Origin: Methanohalobium evestigatum Z-7303
Lineage (GTDB): Archaea; Halobacteriota; Methanosarcinia; Methanosarcinales; Methanosarcinaceae
Reading direction: 5' to 3'
Assembly: GCF_000196655.1 (NCBI RefSeq)
Contig: NC_014254.1
Location: 1-64,000 of the forward strand
Length of the DNA: 64,000 nt
Shown piece after piece: positions 40,880 through 62,010 of this stretch. Below the pieces are notes generated by a model. The model was given only the letters and a program-made list of their open reading frames with translations. It was not told the DNA's origin and made no database searches. The position numbers were made by a program, and so were the translations under genes. The stretch's first letter is position 1. Each line of letters opens with the position of its first letter.

Positions 40880-41686
40880 ATGGAATTCAAAGAACTTACA
40901 GATGAACAATGGGAATTCATTGAACCTTATCTACCGCCGCAACCTTCAACCGGTAGGAAAAGGGTTGATGACCGCAAGGTCATCAACGGTATACTGTTTG
41001 TACTGATTACTGGTTGTCGGTGGGGAGATATGCCCAAACGTTATGGATCACCTATAACTGCATGGAGACGATTGAAAACTTAGTCACAAGAAGGTATATG
41101 GAATAATATTATACAAGCTCTACGCGATACCGCATACATCAACGGTAACCTGTCGTTAGATACGATATATATTGACAGCAAATCCAGCGAGACCAAAAAG
41201 GGGAAAATAACACGATATAGATATCATGTTTACAAGAAAAGAAAAGGAATAAAACTCCACGCTTGTATAACTAACGATGGATTTCTTGTAGGATTGATTA
41301 TCTTACAAGGTGTCGAATATAATAGTAAAAAGTTCTTTGAACTCATAGAATCTATCAAAATCAATACTAGATCCAGACCCAGAACAAGACCTGATGAAGT
41401 ATTGGCTAATTCTGCATTTGATACATTAGATATCCGTGGGTATTTAAAGTCCAGATTGATTAAAAATAATATTCAAGTAAATCCCGGAATCCAGAAAAGG
41501 AGGAGTTTAGGAAGACCTGCAAGATTTGAACCCAGGTTTTATCACAAGAGAACTACTATAGAACGGTTATTTGCATGGTTGAAAATGAGATTCAGAAAAG
41601 TGAACAACAGATACGAAAGATTGGACTCAGTATTTAAGGGGTTATTAAATATCGCATGTTTTATGTTATGCTGGAACAAGGTTTAA
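40880..41686 (+). CDS. IS5-family transposase with in-frame TAG (possible pyrrolysine)
   Basis: A 269-codon frame, full length for this IS5/IS1031 subgroup. The N-terminal LTDEQWEFIEPYLPP and GCRWGDMPKRYG precede LSLDTIYIDSKSSETKKG and YKKRKGIKLH (first Asp), EVLANSAFDT (second) and YHKRTTIERLFAWLKMRFRK (Glu). The only defect is a TAG at 41081-41083, codon 68, at a place where relatives often have Trp (RLKxWSQEG). The frame is otherwise clean on both sides. If UAG is decoded as pyrrolysine, as in methylotrophic Methanosarcinaceae, the protein is complete; otherwise it is a nonsense mutant (TGG to TAG). Confidence 0.85.
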
Positions 41687-53649: not shown

Positions 53650-54072
53650 ATATAATATATTTATTCTGTATTAGAATTATTATATGAGATGATTTCCAGA
53701 TTTATAAGATTAATGGTTTTTGAAAACGTTATAAATGACTAACAAACTTTTATGATTGATAATTTAATGTTATAATATTTATTTGAACTTGAAAGTCATT
53801 ATTATATGCTGATAAAATTAGTAACCATTTTATCAAGTCATAAAAGTAAATCAAAACCTTATGATAGATTTATTTTTATAAAAATGCTTATCCATGTTTA
53901 TCAATTTTTCATTCAAGTATATAGGGAAAAAGTGAGAAAAATTAGACAGTTTCTTATCTGGTGTAGTTATTGTATCCCGTATTACCGGGGAAGAATACAA
54001 TATTGTTTTAGAGTCATCGACTCATCCCGTATAAACAGAATCTAATTTCACCTTGGATGAAACAAGAAGCAC
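53650..54072. other. Mostly non-coding stretch with a doubtful 79-codon frame
   Basis: An open frame at 53806-54045 (+) starts MLIKLVTILSSHKSKSK and is basic, without ribosome site or recognised domain. I regard it as unproven. The surrounding sequence is AT-rich and leads into the transposon right end at 54073. Confidence 0.25.
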
Positions 54073-54149
54073 TTTAAATCATAGATTTAAAGTTATCCTT
54101 AAATTAAAATTTAAGGAGCCACTTGGTCTTTAGCCAAGTGGTAGTTCAC
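54073..54149 (+). mobile_element. Solo TnpB-transposon right end with three perfect hairpins
   Basis: Three consecutive perfect hairpins: TTTAAATC/GATTTAAA (54073-54091), CCTTAAAT/ATTTAAGG (54097-54116) and CCACTTGG/CCAAGTGG around the loop GTCTTTAGC (54119-54141). The sequence ends TTCAC at 54145-54149. No tnpB accompanies it. It abuts the cdc6 pseudogene and supplies that gene's stop codon (complement of 54146-54148). Confidence 0.75.
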
Positions 54150-55107
54150 AAGTATAAGTCTTCAAAAATGGGATTCGCTTCTTTAATAGCATCAAAAAGA
54201 ACGTATGGATCTTCTGTGGGCTCCAACACTCGGCTATTTCCTCTTCCTCCTCTATCATTAGCAGTGATGAGTCCTATTTTATCAAGCTCAGTGATATATT
54301 CAGAAATTCTATTATTGCTGGGAATACTCATATCTAATTTTTTTCCGTATTTCTTATACATATTTATAATATTTCCCGAATATGGTTTTTTGTTATTTAT
54401 ATATGATTTCAGTATTACAAATAATACAAAACCTTGCTTTAATGATAAACTCTTAGTAGCTTGAATTTTCTTATTTTGATTTAATTTTTTATATGCATCT
54501 AACACATGATCTTGTGTTATTATATCTGAATTTTCAAAATCTGCTATATCTCCAGTGGTTTTTAAAATTTCTAGTGAATATCTCGCATCTTTTTTATCAC
54601 TTGCTGTCAGAGCTGCACAATATGGTATGGTACCTTCATCTAAACAACCATCTTTGAAAGCTATACTTGAACGTTCATTTAATATATTTACCAGTTCTTG
54701 TGAATCGTATCCTGGGAATTCAAGAGATTCATTACCAAATGACGATTTAACCCCTGGACCAATTTTTCCAAAAAAGCTATAATCATTGGTAATGCCTACC
54801 ATCGATATGAACAATTTGTCATCAATATCTTCAAAATCTTCACGACTGAGATTATATATTATCCCCTCATCTTCTAGGTAATCTATTTCATCAAAGATAA
54901 CAATCAAAGATGTTCTTCTTATTTTCAAGAGGTTGATGAGGGTTTCATAATGCTGAGATTTTGAAACCCCATTACGTGGGTGGTCTATAGAACTATCAAT
55001 AGTATAGATTAGATTGTATAAAATATCTGTGGATGTGTTAGTTTTCCGACAATTGATTAGAGCAGGAATTATGCTAACGTCATTGTAATTGATAAACTTA
55101 GTAACAT
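54146..55107 (-). pseudogene. Second cdc6/orc1, 5' end lost to a TnpB insertion
   Basis: The frame is open from about 55107, without a start codon, through TTG 54928 to TGA 54146. It reads IIPALINCRKTNTSTDILYN, a Walker B region LIVIFDEIDYL, sensor-1 SMVGITNDYSF, SLEFPGYDSQEL, ARYSLEILKTTGDIA and a C-terminal winged helix (RISEYITELDKIGLI). Walker A and everything before it are missing: a TnpB element occupies that place. The last codons and stop come from a solo transposon end. The downstream-initiated piece would lack ATP binding. Confidence 0.85.
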
Positions 55108-55109
55108 TA

Positions 55110-56335
55110 GATAACTAATTTTATTATCAATTACATTCGTGAGCTATACTCACCGGGTGTAACGCTACACCCTCTATCCCATCTAAATCAGGGATTGCTT
55201 TTTTCATAATATTATAGGCACCATTTACATCGGCATTGATTATAGTGCCGTTAGATGATTGGAAAAGCCCTCTTTTAATTCTTTTACCAAGATAAGAAGT
55301 CCTTCTCTCAACTGGTTCACCATCGAGGAAAGAACACTTCGATGTATAGGATTCTTCTTGCTCAATCACTTTCAATCCAACATCTTCGGCTTTGTATTTT
55401 AGTTGTTCAAGAAGTCTATGAAATGGAATCTGTGTAAACTTTTGGTTATTGCGCTTACCCATATCCACTTCTTGTTTCCACCCTTCGTTATACCCAATGA
55501 CTAGTGTGCCGATGTTGTGTTTGACACAAAAATCAACAATCCTTTTACTTGCTTTATGGAAGAAGTCATTGATTTTCATTTTATATTTATGGTATAGTTT
55601 TTTCAGTTTTTTGCTATTTTTGATGCCTAATTTATCATAAATAGATTTTAGTTTTCCAGATTTTTTGTTGTAGAACTGGTTTATTGATTTTGCGACTCCG
55701 CCCTTAATAACAATCGGTTTTTCACCGATGTTATTCACCATAGTGACGATATTATTAATACCCAGGTCGATACTGGCGATGTTTTCTTCGTTTAGATCTG
55801 GTGTTTCCAAATCCTTCTCGTAAACAATTTCACACTTATAACCAACTCCCATAGGAAGAATTCGAACTTGATTTAATTTAGTGTCATCTGCAAGACGAGT
55901 TTCTACTTGCAGGTTCGTTTTCTTCGGTAACTTGAGGACACCGTTTTTTATCTTACACTGTTGGTTTGTGAAAGTGAGAATATTTTCGCCATTTTTCTTT
56001 TTATATTTTGGTGGGTTGGGTTTTGAATAGTAATTTTCTGGGTTCTTTTTCCAGTCTTTAATTGATTGGAAGAAAGATTTCCAGTTTTTATCCATCAGTT
56101 TTAGTGTCTGTTGTGCTGTTTGTGTGGGTAAAACAGAATAATTTTCAGTACCTTTTAACTGTTTATTTAGTTCTTCGTATCTTACCCAACCACCTTCATC
56201 ATTTAGAGATTGTTTAACTATGAAGTTTGCCTGGTTGTATAAGTTCTTGGAAATATGACACAACCAGCTAAGGTTTTTATCATAATTTAGGTATATCGTT
56301 TCGGTCCTTTTTACCATAACAATCTCCATGATGAA
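55110..56335 (-). mobile_element. TnpB-only transposon inserted in cdc6 pseudogene
   Basis: The limits are approximate. The low-coordinate boundary is where the cdc6 frame begins (~55107-55115). The other lies just beyond the tnpB start, before the cdc6 5' ghost at 56376. No tnpA, and no end hairpin with the GTCTTTAGC loop. Confidence 0.6.
55127..56329 (-). CDS. tnpB: TnpB RNA-guided nuclease, zinc-finger-less type
   Basis: 400 aa. RuvC motifs are SIDLGINNIVTM (first Asp), VIGYNEGWKQ (second acidic, Glu within YNEG) and INADVNGAYNI (third Asp). Between the last two lies YTSKCSFLDGEPVERR and YLGKRIKRGLFQSS: one cysteine only, no ribbon, like the TnpB at 15.4 kb but only distantly similar elsewhere. 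The start is ATG 56329, or MVKRTETIYL 12 bases later. Apparently intact. Confidence 0.9.
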   Translation of the reverse strand: MEIVMVKRTETIYLNYDKNLSWLCHISKNLYNQANFIVKQSLNDEGGWVRYEELNKQLKGTENYSVLPTQTAQQTLKLMDKNWKSFFQSIKDWKKNPENYYSKPNPPKYKKKNGENILTFTNQQCKIKNGVLKLPKKTNLQVETRLADDTKLNQVRILPMGVGYKCEIVYEKDLETPDLNEENIASIDLGINNIVTMVNNIGEKPIVIKGGVAKSINQFYNKKSGKLKSIYDKLGIKNSKKLKKLYHKYKMKINDFFHKASKRIVDFCVKHNIGTLVIGYNEGWKQEVDMGKRNNQKFTQIPFHRLLEQLKYKAEDVGLKVIEQEESYTSKCSFLDGEPVERRTSYLGKRIKRGLFQSSNGTIINADVNGAYNIMKKAIPDLDGIEGVALHPVSIAHECN

Positions 56336-56375
56336 TATAATTGATTATATTTTATGTTATCAATTCTTATATATT

Positions 56376-56459
56376 TTACTTATAAAGTATACTATATATC
56401 ATCCAGGCAGTTTAATATTTTTCAATAATATATTCAATCTCTTCCTGATTGACCAAATT
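56376..56459 (-). pseudogene. Ghost of cdc6 5' region on the far side of the transposon
   Basis: Minus-strand reading NLVNQEEIEYIIEKY, a stop, then MIYSILYK. This parallels the region of Cdc6 just before and into Walker A (ARDSQIEQIAELVEPVL, then FIYGKTGTGK). It lies immediately beyond the TnpB element that truncates the cdc6 at 54146-55107, so it is probably the missing 5' part in decayed form. The similarity is short. Confidence 0.4.
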
Positions 56460-56598
56460 CTAAAAAATAGCATAATTTTAGATGATAGGAAAACTGAATT
56501 ATATACTTATAGATGTAAAAAAGATAAAAGGAAAGTAGGTTTAAAACACCATCTAACAACCGATAATTAATTTTGTTGCTACTAATTGAATTAGATGT

Positions 56599-57720
56599 TT
56601 ATTCTTCTTTTTTAAACAGTTTGTGATGCGATATTATTAAATTTCGCAGTTCCTCCCTGTTTATCAATTTTACATCATTTGCTTTTGCAAGGTCTACGGC
56701 TTCAGATGTATAGTAATTATTTGTAACGACCATTGCTGAATTGCATAGATAATACCGCATTGAAGCAACAACTTCCTGAACTGCACTGTTTCCCACTTTT
56801 GAACTAGATTGTTTGACCTGTACAGCAATGCGTTTAGATCCAAGTTTGGTCAATATCACATCCGCACCCTGATCTTTGTCATTGGTTTTTTTAGTTCTGC
56901 TTGCATAATATCCCTTATCTCTGTAGATCTTGCATACAGCCTGTTCAAGTTCTTTGGGTGTCAGTTTATCCGGGTTGTCGGGTAATTCTTCATCCTCGCC
57001 ATCTCTGCTTATAAGTAGCAATATATCCTTTAAAGGAACATTTCCTATTTCGCAGATGATTTCAGCGATTTGGCATTTGAACATAAGGTCATCTGTTTCT
57101 TTTAGATATTCTTGAAGTCGGTCTTCAAAATCCTCATCTTTCAACATATCCTCAAGCAATTCCCTTGTTTCAGGATCCCAATTTTCATTAAGTGCATTAA
57201 TAATTGGGTCGATTGCTTCAGGTTCTAATTCCTGAAATATTTCAATTAGGATTTCGCGTTCATCTTCTACAGATTCTCGGAAATAAACAAGAGTTGAAAG
57301 CTCCTTGATCATTTCCCTTTCTTCATGTCTCAAGTAATCAATAATCAGATTTGCAGTATACTTGCTGTGTCTATTTAATATCGATTTATAAGTGAATATT
57401 TTAATCCTATGGTGGATTGTTTCTGGTCTTGGAAGTTTATTCCTGAGTTCATGTAGAACAAATGGAACAGCAGAATCATTATTTTCAAGAATACTTAAAA
57501 ACTCTCTAATTAATTCCTCTGAATTTTCATCATTTCTGATTTCCTCTTTAACTTGTATGACAGCAGGTTCCCTGATATCAGCCAGTATATCTTTTATTTC
57601 TGAGTTCGGGTATGTTTCTTTGAGACAATTAATTAGAGGTTCTACTGCTTTTTCTCCATGGTTTACAAGAGCTCCTTTAATCTCAAGATTGTCCATTGTA
57701 TTGTTTTGTTCATTATTCAA
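56599..57720 (-). CDS. HEAT-repeat protein with Mrr-type endonuclease domain
   Basis: 373 aa. Residues ~1-240 are helical HEAT-like repeats (NHGEKAVEPLINCLKE, EPEAIDPIINALNENW). Residues ~260-370 form an Mrr_cat restriction-endonuclease fold: ELEQAVCKIYRDKGYYASRT, GADVILTKLGSKRIAVQVKQ with the catalytic Asp and Q-x-K, and NSAMVVTNNYYTSEAVDLA. It is expected to bind and cut DNA, perhaps modified or foreign DNA. The motif appears complete. A shorter paralogue follows upstream at 57944-58678 on the same strand. Confidence 0.8.
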   Translation of the reverse strand: MNNEQNNTMDNLEIKGALVNHGEKAVEPLINCLKETYPNSEIKDILADIREPAVIQVKEEIRNDENSEELIREFLSILENNDSAVPFVLHELRNKLPRPETIHHRIKIFTYKSILNRHSKYTANLIIDYLRHEEREMIKELSTLVYFRESVEDEREILIEIFQELEPEAIDPIINALNENWDPETRELLEDMLKDEDFEDRLQEYLKETDDLMFKCQIAEIICEIGNVPLKDILLLISRDGEDEELPDNPDKLTPKELEQAVCKIYRDKGYYASRTKKTNDKDQGADVILTKLGSKRIAVQVKQSSSKVGNSAVQEVVASMRYYLCNSAMVVTNNYYTSEAVDLAKANDVKLINREELRNLIISHHKLFKKEE

Positions 57721-57943
57721 TTCTTTTATAAGCGGCTATATGGATATTTTTTCAATTTTGTTCACATTTAAACCTCCTTAATTTTATATTTATATTTTTA
57801 TAAAATTCAATTAAACGTTTGGTTTTTTTGTGCAGATAATTTTGAGAATAAAACAACTGAGAAAAGTGATTTTTTCAAATTCTGGAAAAATAAAATCCAT
57901 GTAGAAGAATGGACTTAAAAACTGATTTAAAACCGGAAATTCT

Positions 57944-58678
57944 TTACAGATTAACCATTTCTTCCAGTTGTTCTCTATTGATTAGGGAAACATTATTCGA
58001 TTCCGCTAGTTTTACTGCTTTTTGTGTAAAATCCTGGTTGGAAACGACTATGGCACTGTTGCAATGGTAGTAGCTCTTTGCCGCAACGATTTCCTGAACA
58101 GCATTTCTCGTGACTTTTTGACCTGGGTTTAGATGTTTTATAAGAACCGCGGTTCTCTCGACTCCGTATTCAGTTATGACAAAATCTGCACCCATATCTT
58201 TGATGCCAGTTCTTTCGACCAGATATCCTTTATCTCTGTACATCGACTCGATAAAATCTTCAAATTCTTTCCATGACATTTCGTCCAGGTTATTATTCTG
58301 CTGAGAATTACCAGTTGTCTGTATCTTTTGATTCTGTTTCCTCGAATCGGAACTATCCTGGTTTTCAATGTTTTCCTCGACTCGGTCAAGTATCAACTGC
58401 AGCTGATGGGTGTCCCCATATCGCTGGTACTGTTTTATTTTTCCTGACAGACAATCGACAGCCGGTTGTCCAATCTGTATGAGGATATTTTCTAGGTCCT
58501 GATAGTATCCGTCATGATAGAGGTGTTCGATGATTGTATCTGCTGCCAGATGTTCCATCCTTATCAGGCAATCTTCGATTTCTTTTTTGGTACAGTGGCT
58601 GTCTGTGGATAACATTACTTCTAACATCGATTCTACTGCACTGTCGATTATCTTATCTTTATTTTCTACTTTCATCAT
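57944..58678 (-). CDS. Short HEAT-Mrr paralogue with altered catalytic motif
   Basis: 244 aa. One or two HEAT-like units (~25-85), a Gln/Asn-rich linker (~95-130), then an Mrr-like domain: SWKEFEDFIESMYRDKGYLVERT, GADFVITEYGVERTAVLIKHL, NSAIVVSNQDFTQKAVKLA and NVSLINREQLEEMV. The Q-V-K of its neighbour is L-I-K here, so the catalytic Gln/Glu is lost while the fold motifs remain. It is probably a non-cutting partner or regulator of the paralogue. The two genes are ~220 bp apart on the same strand. Confidence 0.75.
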   Translation of the reverse strand: MMKVENKDKIIDSAVESMLEVMLSTDSHCTKKEIEDCLIRMEHLAADTIIEHLYHDGYYQDLENILIQIGQPAVDCLSGKIKQYQRYGDTHQLQLILDRVEENIENQDSSDSRKQNQKIQTTGNSQQNNNLDEMSWKEFEDFIESMYRDKGYLVERTGIKDMGADFVITEYGVERTAVLIKHLNPGQKVTRNAVQEIVAAKSYYHCNSAIVVSNQDFTQKAVKLAESNNVSLINREQLEEMVNL

Positions 58679-58786
58679 GCGAAATCCTCCTTTTATTCTT
58701 GGTTTAAATCCGGGTGATAGCTCCTGCAGCTCTTTTTCCTATTAGTGTCAAAAGATCTCAGGATTCTATATTTTCTACAATTACCC

Positions 58787-58850
58787 GCTCTTGCAATTAA
58801 CAGCTAGTTTCCTGCTACCGTTAATTGCATTGGTTCGTATGGTTATTTTT
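58787..58850. repeat. Hairpin repeat, copy A (partial)
   Basis: CAATTAAC (58794-58801) and GTTAATTG (58820-58827) form a stem around TTTCCTGCTACC. It is a diverged half-copy of the second hairpin in copies B and C, including the GGTTATTTTT tail. Confidence 0.55.
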
Positions 58851-58923
58851 TGTAGTGGTTTAGAGAACAAAAGCAGCTGGAATAATCTGATCATATCCAG
58901 TAATCAACATAGAAAATAAAAAA

Positions 58924-59070
58924 GAGAGGACCAGGCACTCCCCCTGTTAGCCTGCTCCTCTGTATACCCCTATTAAACCCCCCAACGCACGCTCTCTCGT
59001 AATCAACAACCAATTTCCTCGTTACTGTTGATTACATGAATTTGTTTGGTTATTTTTGTGCGTAATTTGA
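58924..59070. repeat. Double-hairpin repeat, copy B
   Basis: Hairpin 1 has arms GAGGACCAGGC and GCCTGCTCCTC (58926-58960). After ~40 bases hairpin 2 has arms TAATCAACA (59000-59008) and TGTTGATTA (59026-59034). It is nearly identical to copy C over ~130 bp. The mazEF-like pair lies between B and C. Confidence 0.75.
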
Positions 59071-59153
59071 TACATAAACAACTGTAATAATATATTAATT
59101 AAAAATTCTGTAAAAAAACAATTTTATCACTGATCGAAATAAGTTAATAAGAG

Positions 59154-59486
59154 TTAACTCGTAAAGATGTTAACTAACTTCTTTTCCACTTCATCTGTTT
59201 TATCATTTTTTAGGTATCCTACTTTGTATAATATTAATGATTTATCAGCGGTAAAAATCCTATTTGGCCGAATGTTGCTATTTTTGCGTAAAGTTCCATA
59301 TTCAAAATCATTATCATTTAACGTTATTGAATAATTATCAATTTTGACCGCGCTTGTAATCATACAAAGAATTATATCTTCTCCTTGTAAATTGGCTAAC
59401 ACAAGAGCAGGTCTCTTTTTAGAATTACTCATATCAGAAAAAGGGAATGGTAATACAACAACATCTCCTTTTACAAATCTTTCCAT
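59154..59486 (-). CDS. MazF/PemK-type toxin
   Basis: 110 aa. MERFVKGDVVVLPFPFSD is the MazF N-terminal beta-strand pair, KRPALVLANLQ carries the conserved basic/Pro segment, and ILCMITSA the catalytic-site strand. Members of this family cleave mRNA (mRNA interferases). It overlaps its antitoxin by 16 bases and is translated after it, the usual toxin-antitoxin order. Confidence 0.85.
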   Translation of the reverse strand: MERFVKGDVVVLPFPFSDMSNSKKRPALVLANLQGEDIILCMITSAVKIDNYSITLNDNDFEYGTLRKNSNIRPNRIFTADKSLILYKVGYLKNDKTDEVEKKLVNIFTS

Positions 59487-59719
59487 GTTTCATCCTCTTC
59501 TTCTGTATCCCATTCTTTTTTGAGGACCTTTTCGCTTGCTAAAGCAGTAGAGATTTTTTCATCCAACTGGTCCATGGATCTCAACTCTATTCTATCATCG
59601 TATGCAAGTATCACAATTTTAGAACCTTCTTTAAAATTTTCAAGTTCCCTTATTTCTTTAGGTATTGATATTTGACCTTTCTTTGTAATCTTAGCGCTTC
59701 TGAAATCGATAAGTGTCAT
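59471..59719 (-). CDS. AbrB/MazE-type antitoxin
   Basis: 82 aa. The swapped-hairpin AbrB fold is at residues ~8-50: KITKKGQISIPKEIRE and GSKIVILAYDDRIELR. An acidic C-terminal tail (WDTEEEDETWKDL) would wrap the toxin. It probably binds its own promoter, which lies within or beside repeat copy C. Confidence 0.85.
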   Translation of the reverse strand: MTLIDFRSAKITKKGQISIPKEIRELENFKEGSKIVILAYDDRIELRSMDQLDEKISTALASEKVLKKEWDTEEEDETWKDL

Positions 59720-59821
59720 ATAAGTAAGAAATGTAAGAATAATATTTAATGGTTTTGTACATTCCAGAATAGCGATTTCAACCTATAAAATTTTAGATTT
59801 TGATTAAAAATTATATTAAAA

Positions 59822-59953
59822 TGAGGAACAGGCTCCCCCATTAGCCTGCTCCTCCATACCCCAATGAACTCCCCAACACGCTCTCTCGTAATCAACAACC
59901 AATTTCCTCGTTACTGTTGATTACATGAATTTGTTTGGTTTTTTGTGCGTTAT
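59822..59953. repeat. Double-hairpin repeat, copy C
   Basis: Hairpin 1 is GAGGAACAGGCT/AGCCTGCTCCTC (59823-59854) and hairpin 2 TAATCAACA/TGTTGATTA (59889-59923), followed by the same GAATTTGTTTGGTT tail as copy B. It lies in the promoter-side flank of the mazEF-like pair and directly precedes a TnpB remnant. Confidence 0.75.
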
Positions 59954-59976
59954 TTGCTATTTTGAACAGCTGCAAA

Positions 59977-60250
59977 GTGAACTACCGCTGAGCTAAAGAC
60001 TCAGCGGCTTCGGAAGAAGGTTACCATGAAAGCCTTACTCTTTAAATCAAAGATTTAAAGATATTTGTAAATTTTCAATTTACAAAGTTCTTCCCGGGGA
60101 GTTCACGTCCCCACTATCGGTTATCCCTGCAAGGGAATCACCGATTACCTTTCTCAAGATGTTCAATGCACCGTTGATATCGGCATTGATCAGCCTACCT
60201 GTAGATGACTGGAAGATTCCTCTCTTAGGTCTTTTACCGAATTTGTAAGC
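59977..60250 (-). mobile_element. Truncated TnpB element (right end and tnpB 3' end)
   Basis: On the minus strand it encodes GKRPKRGIFQSSTGRLINAD and NGALNILRKVIGDSL, almost the C-terminus of the TnpB at 15.4 kb. Two extra AT-rich perfect hairpins follow, TTTGTAAAT/ATTTACAAA (60064-60086) and TTTAAATC/GATTTAAA (60041-60059). Then comes the right-end hairpin CCGCTGA/TCAGCGG (59985-60007) with the usual loop and TTCAC (59977-59981). The intact element lacks the AT hairpins. The 5' part is lost against the 3' end of the GmrSD-like gene. Confidence 0.75.
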
Positions 60251-60339: not shown

Positions 60340-62010
60340 TTATGGGTATTGCCAAACTTCAAGAGCTTTGTTGGCTAAAGTTTTGCTACGGTTGATTATT
60401 GAATCTTTGTTCCATGCATCATATTCTCTTAAATCACTGTTTAGATATAGAGGACTTTTATCAAATATTTCTTTCTTTTCTTTGAAAGTGGAATCACCAA
60501 GTTCAGGATTATGAGCAGTAAGAGTCAGGTTACCTATTGTGTGCAAATAATGGTTCTGAACTTCTTTCCAGTTTGGACCCAGTTGATCGATCCAGGCTTC
60601 TGGTAAATTGGGATTCTGGGGCATTATATGTTCTATTGTGTAATTATCCATGTATATAGGTTCTTTAGTTCTGAAGTCATTTGCATTTTCTAGTTTAGTT
60701 AGCAGATATTTACAGTTTCTAAAATTATATACATCCTTATTCATCAGTTCATTGTAAAATTCATCGTCTTCTGGGAACCTTCTATAGGTTTCTTTTGACA
60801 TTAGTGCAGCTTTAACACTTTCAACATAGTTATCCTTGTCTACTTCATTCATCAAAGTAGAAAAAGTTTTATTGAGTGAATTTGTTGGGATACTGCAGAT
60901 AGCTCTACGGAATACATAAGAGATTACAACATCAAGTATTTCAATAAAATCTTTTTTATCTATATTGCCATCTTGATAATCGTAATATACCTGTAGTAGG
61001 AATGGATAAGCAACTTCGACTTTCAAGATGTTGATTTCATTAAATTTCTCATTTAAACCATCGTCATTTTCTTTATTGAAGGCGATGTTCATATACAATT
61101 TAGAATGACAGTATATGTCCTGAATTATTTCTTGAGTGGTGTTTTCTAGCCCTTTATAGTACTGTTTAAATTCTTCATATATTTCGTTAAAACGTGGAAT
61201 CCTATTTAATTTGATAGTTAGATAATCACGCATGAACCTATCAAATCGTTCTTGATAATTTTCATGTCCAAAAATTTGTTCCATTTTGTACCAGTAATTA
61301 TTGTACAGATTTTTCTGGTGTTGTTGTTCCAGACCCATTAGTAGATAATTTCTTATTAAATCAGATTGTGACAAATCAAGCCCTGTAGAATTTAAACTTT
61401 CAAAAATAAGTTGTGGATTGTCCATGTTGGCATCTAACGAAATATCTACAATGATTAATTTTTGAAGAGCTTTGAATATCTATTCTAAGTTTTCAGGTGC
61501 GTATTCTGTTATTTTATTTTTGAAAAAGTAGTAGTTTTTGATTATATTTGGAGAATAATCATTTTGGATTTCATTGTTTTCCAAAATATTTACGTAAGTA
61601 TCGTTATCGTTTCTATTCAATACCAGTTTATACCTTAATTCATCCTCTTCATCTTGATTTAAAAGATAATAGTTTTTGATTTTACGTGAATTAATACCTT
61701 TTACTTGGTCACTATTATTTTTTATAGCTTCTCTTAAAGCCTGCAATAACAAAGAAATCGTAGTCAAACGCTGCTGTCCGTCTATAACATGTAGTTTTGT
61801 AATTGTTGATATCTGGTAAATGTCACTATTGATATAAACAATAGATCCCAAAAAATGGCTCTGATATTGACCATTCAGAAGACGTTCAATGTCCTCCCAT
61901 AATTTCTGGCAATGGTTTTCGTTCCAGCTGTATGTACGTTGATATATAGGGACAATGAACTGTTTTTGCCCTTCTAAAAATTTATGCAGGTTAATTTCTC
62001 CAGCTTTCAT
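60340..62010 (-). CDS. GmrSD-like DUF262/DUF1524 nuclease with in-frame TAG
   Basis: A 557-codon frame from ATG 62010 to TAA 60340, interrupted only by TAG at 61480-61482 (codon 177). DUF262 (ParB-like nucleotide-dependent domain): PIYQRTYSWN and HVIDGQQRLTT (~75-84). Immediately after the TAG the conserved family sequence continues: IFKALQKLIIVDISLD and DNPQLIFESLNSTGLDLS. The C-terminal DUF1524 HNH nuclease has NYTIEHIMPQNPN near 455-467 and HTIGNLTLT. The family includes type IV restriction enzymes that attack modified phage DNA. No frame is lost on either side of the TAG, so pyrrolysine read-through would give a complete enzyme. Confidence 0.85.

What the first reader, a model, noticed from the sequence alone, without database searches (positions are those of the whole stretch)
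56599..58678. Tandem HEAT-Mrr pair: one apparently active, one with a broken nuclease motif
Both share the rare combination of HEAT repeats and an Mrr-type domain. One keeps G-A-D...Q-V-K, the other has L-I-K. Paired active/inactive nucleases with scaffold repeats often form sensor-effector complexes, so this may be an undescribed restriction or genome-surveillance system. It lies amid a toxin-antitoxin pair, a GmrSD-like nuclease and a DUF1998 relic.
Basis: partly seen in the sequence, partly recalled or inferred. Interest (0 to 1): 0.65.

Follow-up and report, generated by a model that had tools for sequence, protein, structure and literature searches.

The report
Mrr nuclease module with pyrrolysine codon
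A salt-loving methane-making archaeon carries several copies of a small gene module pairing a DNA-cutting enzyme with apparently disabled look-alikes, and the gene for the cutting enzyme seems to be read through a 'stop' codon that this organism uses for the rare amino acid pyrrolysine.

Summary
The pair is real. A (57944-58678, minus) and B (56599 to a corrected GTG start at 57765, minus) both carry Mrr nuclease domains. B keeps D-Q-G-A-D...Q-V-K; A has L in place of Q, as its three homologues have L or V. HEAT repeats are likely but score below curated cut-offs.

It is not a lone pair. It is an A-B-C module present three times in this genome and once in another Methanohalobium genome. C is a small Mrr domain with a wrecked active site; the window's C is deleted to a 46-bp remnant. 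One chromosomal copy keeps the whole window order GmrSD-MazE-MazF-A-B-C. A 147-bp intergenic element occurs exactly five times, always upstream of A or mazE, and a short box recurs upstream of module genes.

The unexpected part: B's reading frame crosses an in-frame TAG at codon 10, conserved in three B genes, below the only conserved Shine-Dalgarno and start codon. Both genomes encode PylS and a tRNA with CTA anticodon. The GmrSD gene also crosses a TAG, so it is not obviously broken.

Outside the genus I found no A or B N-terminal domain. Sensor-effector action and antiviral role remain inference. A new variant of a known kind.

The parts
57944..58678 (-). Gene A: helical N-domain + Mrr domain, GAD...L-I-K (Q replaced by L); 244 aa; ATG start with AAAGGAGG upstream
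56599..57765 (-). Gene B, corrected: 388 aa including one in-frame TAG; HEAT-like N-domain + Mrr domain with D-Q-G-A-D...Q-V-K
57736..57738 (-). In-frame TAG, codon 10 of B, also TAG in B1 (L011) and Bg1 (L035)
57773..57779 (-). Shine-Dalgarno-like AAGGAGG of B, 7 nt before GTG 57765
57805..57834 (-). TGCACAAAAAAACCAAAC-type box upstream of B; also upstream of B1, B2, Bg1 at -66 to -71
56396..56441 (-). 46-bp remnant of the 3' end of gene C; the rest of C is deleted in this copy
58926..59072 (-). 147-bp-type intergenic element (hairpin, then terminator-like hairpin) upstream of A; one of exactly five genome copies
59813..59959 (-). Second window copy of the intergenic element, upstream of mazE
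58828..58843 (-). Inner box ACCATACGAACCAATG upstream of A (1 mismatch to ACCAWACRAAYYCATG)
59154..59486 (-). MazF/PemK-like toxin of the toxin-antitoxin pair, 89% identical to the copy near M1
59471..59719 (-). MazE-like antitoxin, 96% identical to the copy near M1
60340..62010 (-). GmrSD-like gene, one 556-aa frame with a TAG at 61480-61482 inside the GmrSD_N domain
55127..56329 (-). IS605-type TnpB next to the C remnant; the same TnpB follows C in the sister genome

Best explanation
A genus-specific defence-island module. B is the catalytic member, a Mrr-type PD-(D/E)xK DNA endonuclease on a HEAT-like arm. A, and where present C, are catalytically weakened or dead paralogues that pair with B through the shared Mrr fold and control when or where it cuts (inferred). 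B is translated from GTG 57765 through a TAG read as pyrrolysine at the start of its first predicted helix, so full-length B needs the pyrrolysine machinery. The module is transcribed from boxes shared with a neighbouring mazEF pair, and the set acts against foreign DNA or plasmids (inferred). Shown by sequence: the domains, motifs, repetition, co-conservation, selection, TAG and shared cis elements. Inferred: TAG decoding as Pyl, A-B contact, cutting and biological role.
For: Module in three copies in G000 and one in G001. dN/dS 0.18-0.30 for A and 0.19-0.24 for B1/B3/Bg. Q kept in 35 of 37 Mrr rows and lost only in A. C has E to L, Q to K, K to C and Q to H in both C rows of the 18-row alignment. 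Island order GmrSD-MazE-MazF-A-B-C repeated at M1. The 147-bp element has exactly five copies, all upstream of A or mazE; the box at 1 mismatch or fewer has 10 places in G000, 9 in the modules. TAG: same codon in B1, B3, Bg1 with no indel and no second-position change over 16 codons; SD and start conserved while no downstream start codon is shared by all three; PylS over cut-off and tRNA-Pyl (CTA) in both genomes; TAG ends 3 of 98 long ORFs though it is 19.6% of stop trinucleotides. The Mrr part of the B model aligns with AF1548 (Z 13.0, 111 residues, rmsd 2.3), MspJI (Z 10.3) and AspBHI (Z 9.8). In M2 the flanks of B match M1/M3 while B itself is only 27-28% identical, as if the effector had been exchanged.
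Against: Only one genus has it. C is deleted in M3, cut short in G001 and has a different end in M2, so a strict three-part complex is unlikely. A differs from an active Mrr by one motif residue and might still cut. HEAT scores are below cut-off. No A-B complex was modelled. The TAG could be bypassed by a downstream start (TTG 57720 or ATG) in B3. The sister genome is a metagenome bin and its second TAG and truncated C could be errors or decay. The PADLOC hits are to Mrr domains of other systems, not to this architecture.
Confidence: 0.42

Rival explanations
1. A, B and C are simply duplicated Mrr nucleases that diverged; each acts alone (for example as separate type IV restriction enzymes) and the motif change in A is a neutral or specificity change.
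For: A keeps E, D, D, K and the downstream Q. Intergenic gaps of about 180-220 bp with a separate SD and box for each gene suggest separate expression. Orphan C and orphan B-like genes exist alone in the genome.
Against: A and B stay adjacent in four of four modules, including one where B was replaced or diverged to 27-28% identity. Q loss is in all A copies, C loses four active-site-type residues in the two copies tested, and A and B1/B3/Bg remain under purifying selection.
Confidence: 0.3
2. The TAG of B is not sense: codons 1-9 are an upstream short ORF or leader, and B starts downstream at TTG/ATG; the leader may regulate B according to amber decoding.
For: The TTG at 57720 opens the table-11 ORF in B3, and a TTG does so in Bg1. 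The Mrr domain is entirely downstream.
Against: The TTG is TTA in B1, the ATG of B1/B3 is absent in Bg1, none of these has an SD, and the HEAT_2 match improves when the upstream residues are added (Bg1 E 5.8e-3 to 2.5e-4; B1 1.4e-3 to 1.6e-4; hardly any gain in B3, 0.11 to 0.082). Diverged paralogues B2 and Bsolo align through the same place with E, A1 with K (alignment by eye).
Confidence: 0.2
3. The modules are mobile-element cargo or plasmid-maintenance genes with no defence role, spread by plasmid integration and now decaying.
For: TnpB genes flank or interrupt three of four modules, an Orc1/Cdc6 gene lies near M2 and a shortened one near M3. C is decaying in three of four modules.
Against: A is intact in all four copies, and A and B1/B3/Bg show purifying selection; they travel with GmrSD and MazEF rather than with transposase genes of one family.
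Confidence: 0.2

Closest known systems
Mrr / type IV modification-dependent endonucleases (Pfam Mrr_cat; structural neighbours MspJI, AspBHI, AF1548)
   Same: Catalytic domain family, fold and D...QxK motif of B
   Different: HEAT-like N-domain instead of a known base-recognition domain; encoded with motif-altered paralogues; TAG in the B frame
NA-iREase1 (Pfam PF22722, NACHT-associated inactive restriction endonuclease)
   Same: A, B and C-type domains also match this family of domains named inactive
   Different: Weaker than Mrr_cat in every protein tested; no NACHT ATPase found among the module genes
CoCoNuT and other tandem-nuclease type IV systems
   Same: Tandem nucleases, some with inactivating replacements, near other nucleases; HEAT-like helical domain in one type (passages of PMC11090510)
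   Different: No McrB-type GTPase, coiled-coil or HEPN domain seen here; the paper's passage says CoCoNuTs are nearly absent in archaea
Pyrrolysine-containing proteins of Methanosarcinaceae (methylamine methyltransferases, some transposases, Thg1)
   Same: In-frame amber codon in a PylS/tRNA-Pyl organism
   Different: A restriction-type nuclease is not among the examples in the passages of PMC8211752; the residue is at a predicted helix start, not in the active site, of window B

Membership tests
Mrr_cat nuclease (PF04471) | Profile match over curated cut-off | tested here: met
   B 98.1 bits, A 87.0 bits against cut-off 21; C1 38.3, orphan C 36.6
Mrr_cat nuclease (PF04471) | Intact D...(Q/E)xK motif | tested here: met
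   B only: D, D, Q, K all kept; A lacks Q in all copies; C lacks Q and K
Mrr_cat nuclease (PF04471) | PD-(D/E)xK fold | tested here: met
   B model residues 269-381 align with AF1548 at Z 13.0, Mrr part mostly pLDDT over 80; A only at low confidence
HEAT-repeat protein | HEAT profile over cut-off / paired-helix solenoid | tested here: inconclusive
   HEAT_2 best E 1.6e-4 but under the 27.7-bit cut-off; helix pairs at modest pLDDT; solenoid matches at Z 6-8 only
Type IV restriction system | Cuts modified foreign DNA | not testable with these tools
   No assay; only domain and neighbourhood evidence
Active/inactive nuclease sensor-effector pair | One catalytic and one non-catalytic partner, co-inherited | tested here: inconclusive
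   Co-inheritance in four of four modules and motif loss in A; inactivity and contact untested
Pyrrolysine-containing protein | Organism has PylS and tRNA-Pyl | tested here: met
   pylBCD not tested
Pyrrolysine-containing protein | Conserved in-frame TAG with coding-type conservation on both sides | tested here: met
   three sequences only
Pyrrolysine-containing protein | Pyl found in the protein | not testable with these tools
   needs mass spectrometry

The most novel reading that the evidence does not exclude
A pyrrolysine-gated immune nuclease: the effector B is made in full only when the cell charges tRNA-Pyl, its cutting is governed by the pseudo-nucleases A and C, and the antitoxin MazE (or another regulator of the shared box) controls module and toxin together, so that amber decoding, a toxin-antitoxin pair and a nuclease/pseudo-nuclease pair form one regulated defence circuit.
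Probability: 0.12. Interest if true: 0.85.

Novelty: new variant of a known kind. Interest (0 to 1): 0.58.

Why it matters
If right, it extends pyrrolysine beyond methylamine enzymes to restriction-type nucleases (B and GmrSD in one island) and gives a compact, multi-copy natural test case of catalytic and non-catalytic Mrr paralogues kept together. It also warns that table-11 annotation truncates B and splits GmrSD in such genomes, so defence genes can be missed.

Tried and rejected
B as a broken gene in the sister genome: its TAG at the Q of DQGAD is the same codon type as the conserved one, so under Pyl decoding it need not be broken; left open. GmrSD as a frameshift relic: rejected, both halves lie in one frame across a TAG, the GmrSD_N match rises from 102.3 to 133.6 bits across it, and a chromosomal paralogue reads E there. 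CARD domain in B: a sub-cut-off hit (E 2.4e-4) seen only in B3 and not in B1, B2, Bsolo or Bg1; dropped. Rfam match for the intergenic element: one hit far under its gathering score (17.7 against 50, E 0.46); rejected. Covariation support for the element's hairpins: none, 0 of 38 pairs with changes on both sides; the five copies are too alike. Viral contigs: no relatives of A or B, seven Mrr-domain hits only. PLSDB megablast of 54000-60000: no match, but the tool warns that the window's own records may be left out. NCBIfam: no family for six proteins. The single-sequence A model (mean pLDDT 46) was not used for fold search. dN/dS of C2 was mis-framed and is replaced; the GmrSD dN/dS failed (script error after the B and C rows) and is not reported. 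The Foldseek search gave no hit at E 0.001 or better.

Full report
What the window is. The window lies on the smaller contig (C2) of a two-contig genome of 2,406,232 bases; C1 is 2,242,317 bases. A same-genus genome, G001, matches record NZ_JAHENT010000097.1, titled Methanohalobium sp., so the genus is Methanohalobium. The contig sizes fit M. evestigatum Z-7303 and its plasmid from memory only.

Observation. A and B exist as described and both are Mrr_cat proteins. In 37 aligned Mrr rows, E, D, G, D, K and a later Q are invariant; Q of QxK is present in 35 of 37 and replaced by L only in the two A rows. In the 18-row alignment the three A rows read L, L and V, the B rows Q, and the two C rows differ at four otherwise conserved places (E to L, Q to K, K to C, Q to H). 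HEAT is likely, not proven: HEAT_2 is below cut-off in B1, B3 and Bg1 and absent from B2, Bsolo and all A proteins scanned.

A module, not a pair. Searching the own genome with A gave three A copies (100, 85 and 75% identity), each followed by a B-type gene, two of them also by C. G001 has A, B and a shortened C between two TnpB genes. In the window, homology to M1 stops at 56456 and resumes at 56441-56396 against the end of C1: C has been deleted. M2 keeps matching flanks up to the B start and again at C, but B2 is only 27-28% identical to B1 and B3 by BLASTP, so B was exchanged or diverged fast. Upstream of M1 on the chromosome lie a GmrSD gene (67 and 72% identical over the two window halves), MazE (96%) and MazF (89%) in the window's order.

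Distribution. With A as query, 33 of 149 relatives match at 1e-4, but outside the genus no listed match begins before residue 96. With B, 51 of 149 match and outside the genus none begins before residue 232. A profile of A's N-domain gives strong hits only in G000 and G001 among 294 genomes of the phylum; four others are weak (E 0.0016 to 0.0065). A B-family profile matches 39 of 294 at 1e-10; outside the genus none begins before profile position 173. A genome-contig scan kept 80 of 124 relatives; one is the sister genome, the rest begin at query residue 117 or later. Of 87 loci, the sister genome and L114 hold more than one Mrr gene, and L157 has one domain split over two ORFs. The first A scan of genome contigs found none.

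The TAG. A profile match to B ran upstream past a TAG. Upstream of it lie GTG 57765 and AAGGAGG. B1 (L011:8336) and Bg1 (L035:2053) have the same arrangement: start, eight more codons, TAG, PLI. Over the first 16 codons there are no indels; differences per pair at codon positions 1, 2, 3 are 1,0,3; 3,0,2; 2,0,3, while the 5' region has indels. The annotated TTG start is TTA in B1, and the next ATG is missing in Bg1. At the TAG column, paralogues B2 and Bsolo appear to have E and A1 K (alignment by eye). Both genomes have PylS over cut-off and a tRNA-Pyl with CTA anticodon; pylB, C and D were not sought. In seven held stretches, 3 of 98 non-overlapping ORFs of 100 aa or more end in TAG (71 TAA, 24 TGA), TAG being 19.6% of stop trinucleotides; one of the three is the GmrSD half-gene. 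Domains cross a TAG in two more window genes: GmrSD and an IS5-type transposase (PF13340 match 6-77 around codon 68). The sister-genome B has a second TAG at the Q of DQGAD. PMC8211752 (passages seen) names methyltransferases, some transposases and Thg1 as the Pyl proteins known, says that no cis element was found or required in E. coli, and that in Acetohalobium UAG is sense only on trimethylamine. PMC3639795 (passages) included M. evestigatum in a Pyl-gene screen; its known positives were methyltransferases, transposases and a TetR; I did not see its full candidate list. I recall, without having seen it here, a recent report that some archaea read all TAG codons as Pyl; searches did not return it.

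Shared cis elements. A 147-bp element has exactly five matches in G000, upstream of A1, A2, A3, mazE1 and mazE3, and none in G001, where a TnpB sits in its place upstream of A. It folds into a hairpin and a second, T-followed hairpin, without covariation support. The hairpin pattern occurs only at these five places. The box ACCAWACRAAYYCATG with at most one mismatch has 10 places in G000, nine in the modules (two each upstream of A1, A2 and A3, one upstream of C1, mazE1, mazE3) and one elsewhere; in G001 two, one upstream of C. The reversed-pattern control was reported only for up to two mismatches (15 against 36 in G000; 15 against 20 in G001). A similar box lies 66-71 bp before B1, B2, B3 and Bg1. 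A looser window scan for a related word gave 3 matches where 7 of 100 shuffles reach that number, so the box is not significant by that word in the window alone. That MazE binds it is a guess from antitoxin autoregulation.

Structure. B with 37 rows: mean pLDDT 65; ten-residue blocks of the Mrr part mostly 82-98 with one at 67 and the last at 55; the N-part paired helices at 29-74; residue 10 sits in the first helix. Foldseek's best were MspJI chains at E 0.0014 and above; VIA-align gave AF1548 Z 13.0, MspJI 10.3, AspBHI 9.8, while solenoid matches of the N-part reached only about 6-8. Only one PDB sequence matched the profile, LlaBIII at E 2.2e-4.

Mechanism. Shown: B has the residues of an active Mrr enzyme; A and C do not; the genes stay together and A and B under selection (dN/dS A 0.18-0.30, B1/B3/Bg 0.19-0.24; C 0.28-0.52, two of six C pairs with upper bootstrap bounds over 1; B2 and Bsolo were too diverged to be counted). 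Inferred: B cuts DNA, A restrains or directs it, Pyl is inserted at codon 10, and the module guards against foreign DNA. One search shows PADLOC matches of B to Mrr domains of ZorD, PDC-S02 and mREase_IV, and GmrSD matches to Orf5, HEC-06 and SspE profiles, which supports the defence setting, not this system.

Literature on the architecture: searches listed no paper on a HEAT-Mrr active/inactive module in archaea (search listings; PMC11090510 passages read). The library lacks most subscription papers.

Noticed in passing
window 60340-62010 (-): GmrSD-like gene is one 556-aa frame with a TAG at 61480-61482 inside GmrSD_N; homologues in other genomes have no stop inside, and the chromosomal paralogue has E and a longer C-terminus.
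   Followed up: yes
window 40880-41686 (+): IS5-type transposase frame crosses a TAG at 41081-41083 inside its DUF4096 domain.
   Followed up: partly
window 58926-59072 and 59813-59959; G000 C1 1187132, 1190016, 1200012: 147-bp element with a terminator-like second hairpin, five copies in the genome, all upstream of A or mazE; possibly a small RNA or leader.
   Followed up: partly
L035/L073 2098-3219: Sister-genome B has a second TAG exactly at the Q of the DQGAD active-site motif; decay, assembly error or pyrrolysine next to the catalytic Asp.
   Followed up: partly
L013:4419-4778 (-) and L014:4781-5929 (+): Orphan C-type and orphan B-type genes elsewhere on the chromosome.
   Followed up: partly
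window 54146-54928 (-); L012:1973-3328 (+): Shortened Cdc6/Orc1 gene beside M3 and a long Orc1/Cdc6-like gene beside M2.
   Followed up: no
L011:15588-16001, L012:528-998, L012:1336-1845: Three related genes of unknown function (about 48-53% identical) around M2.
   Followed up: no
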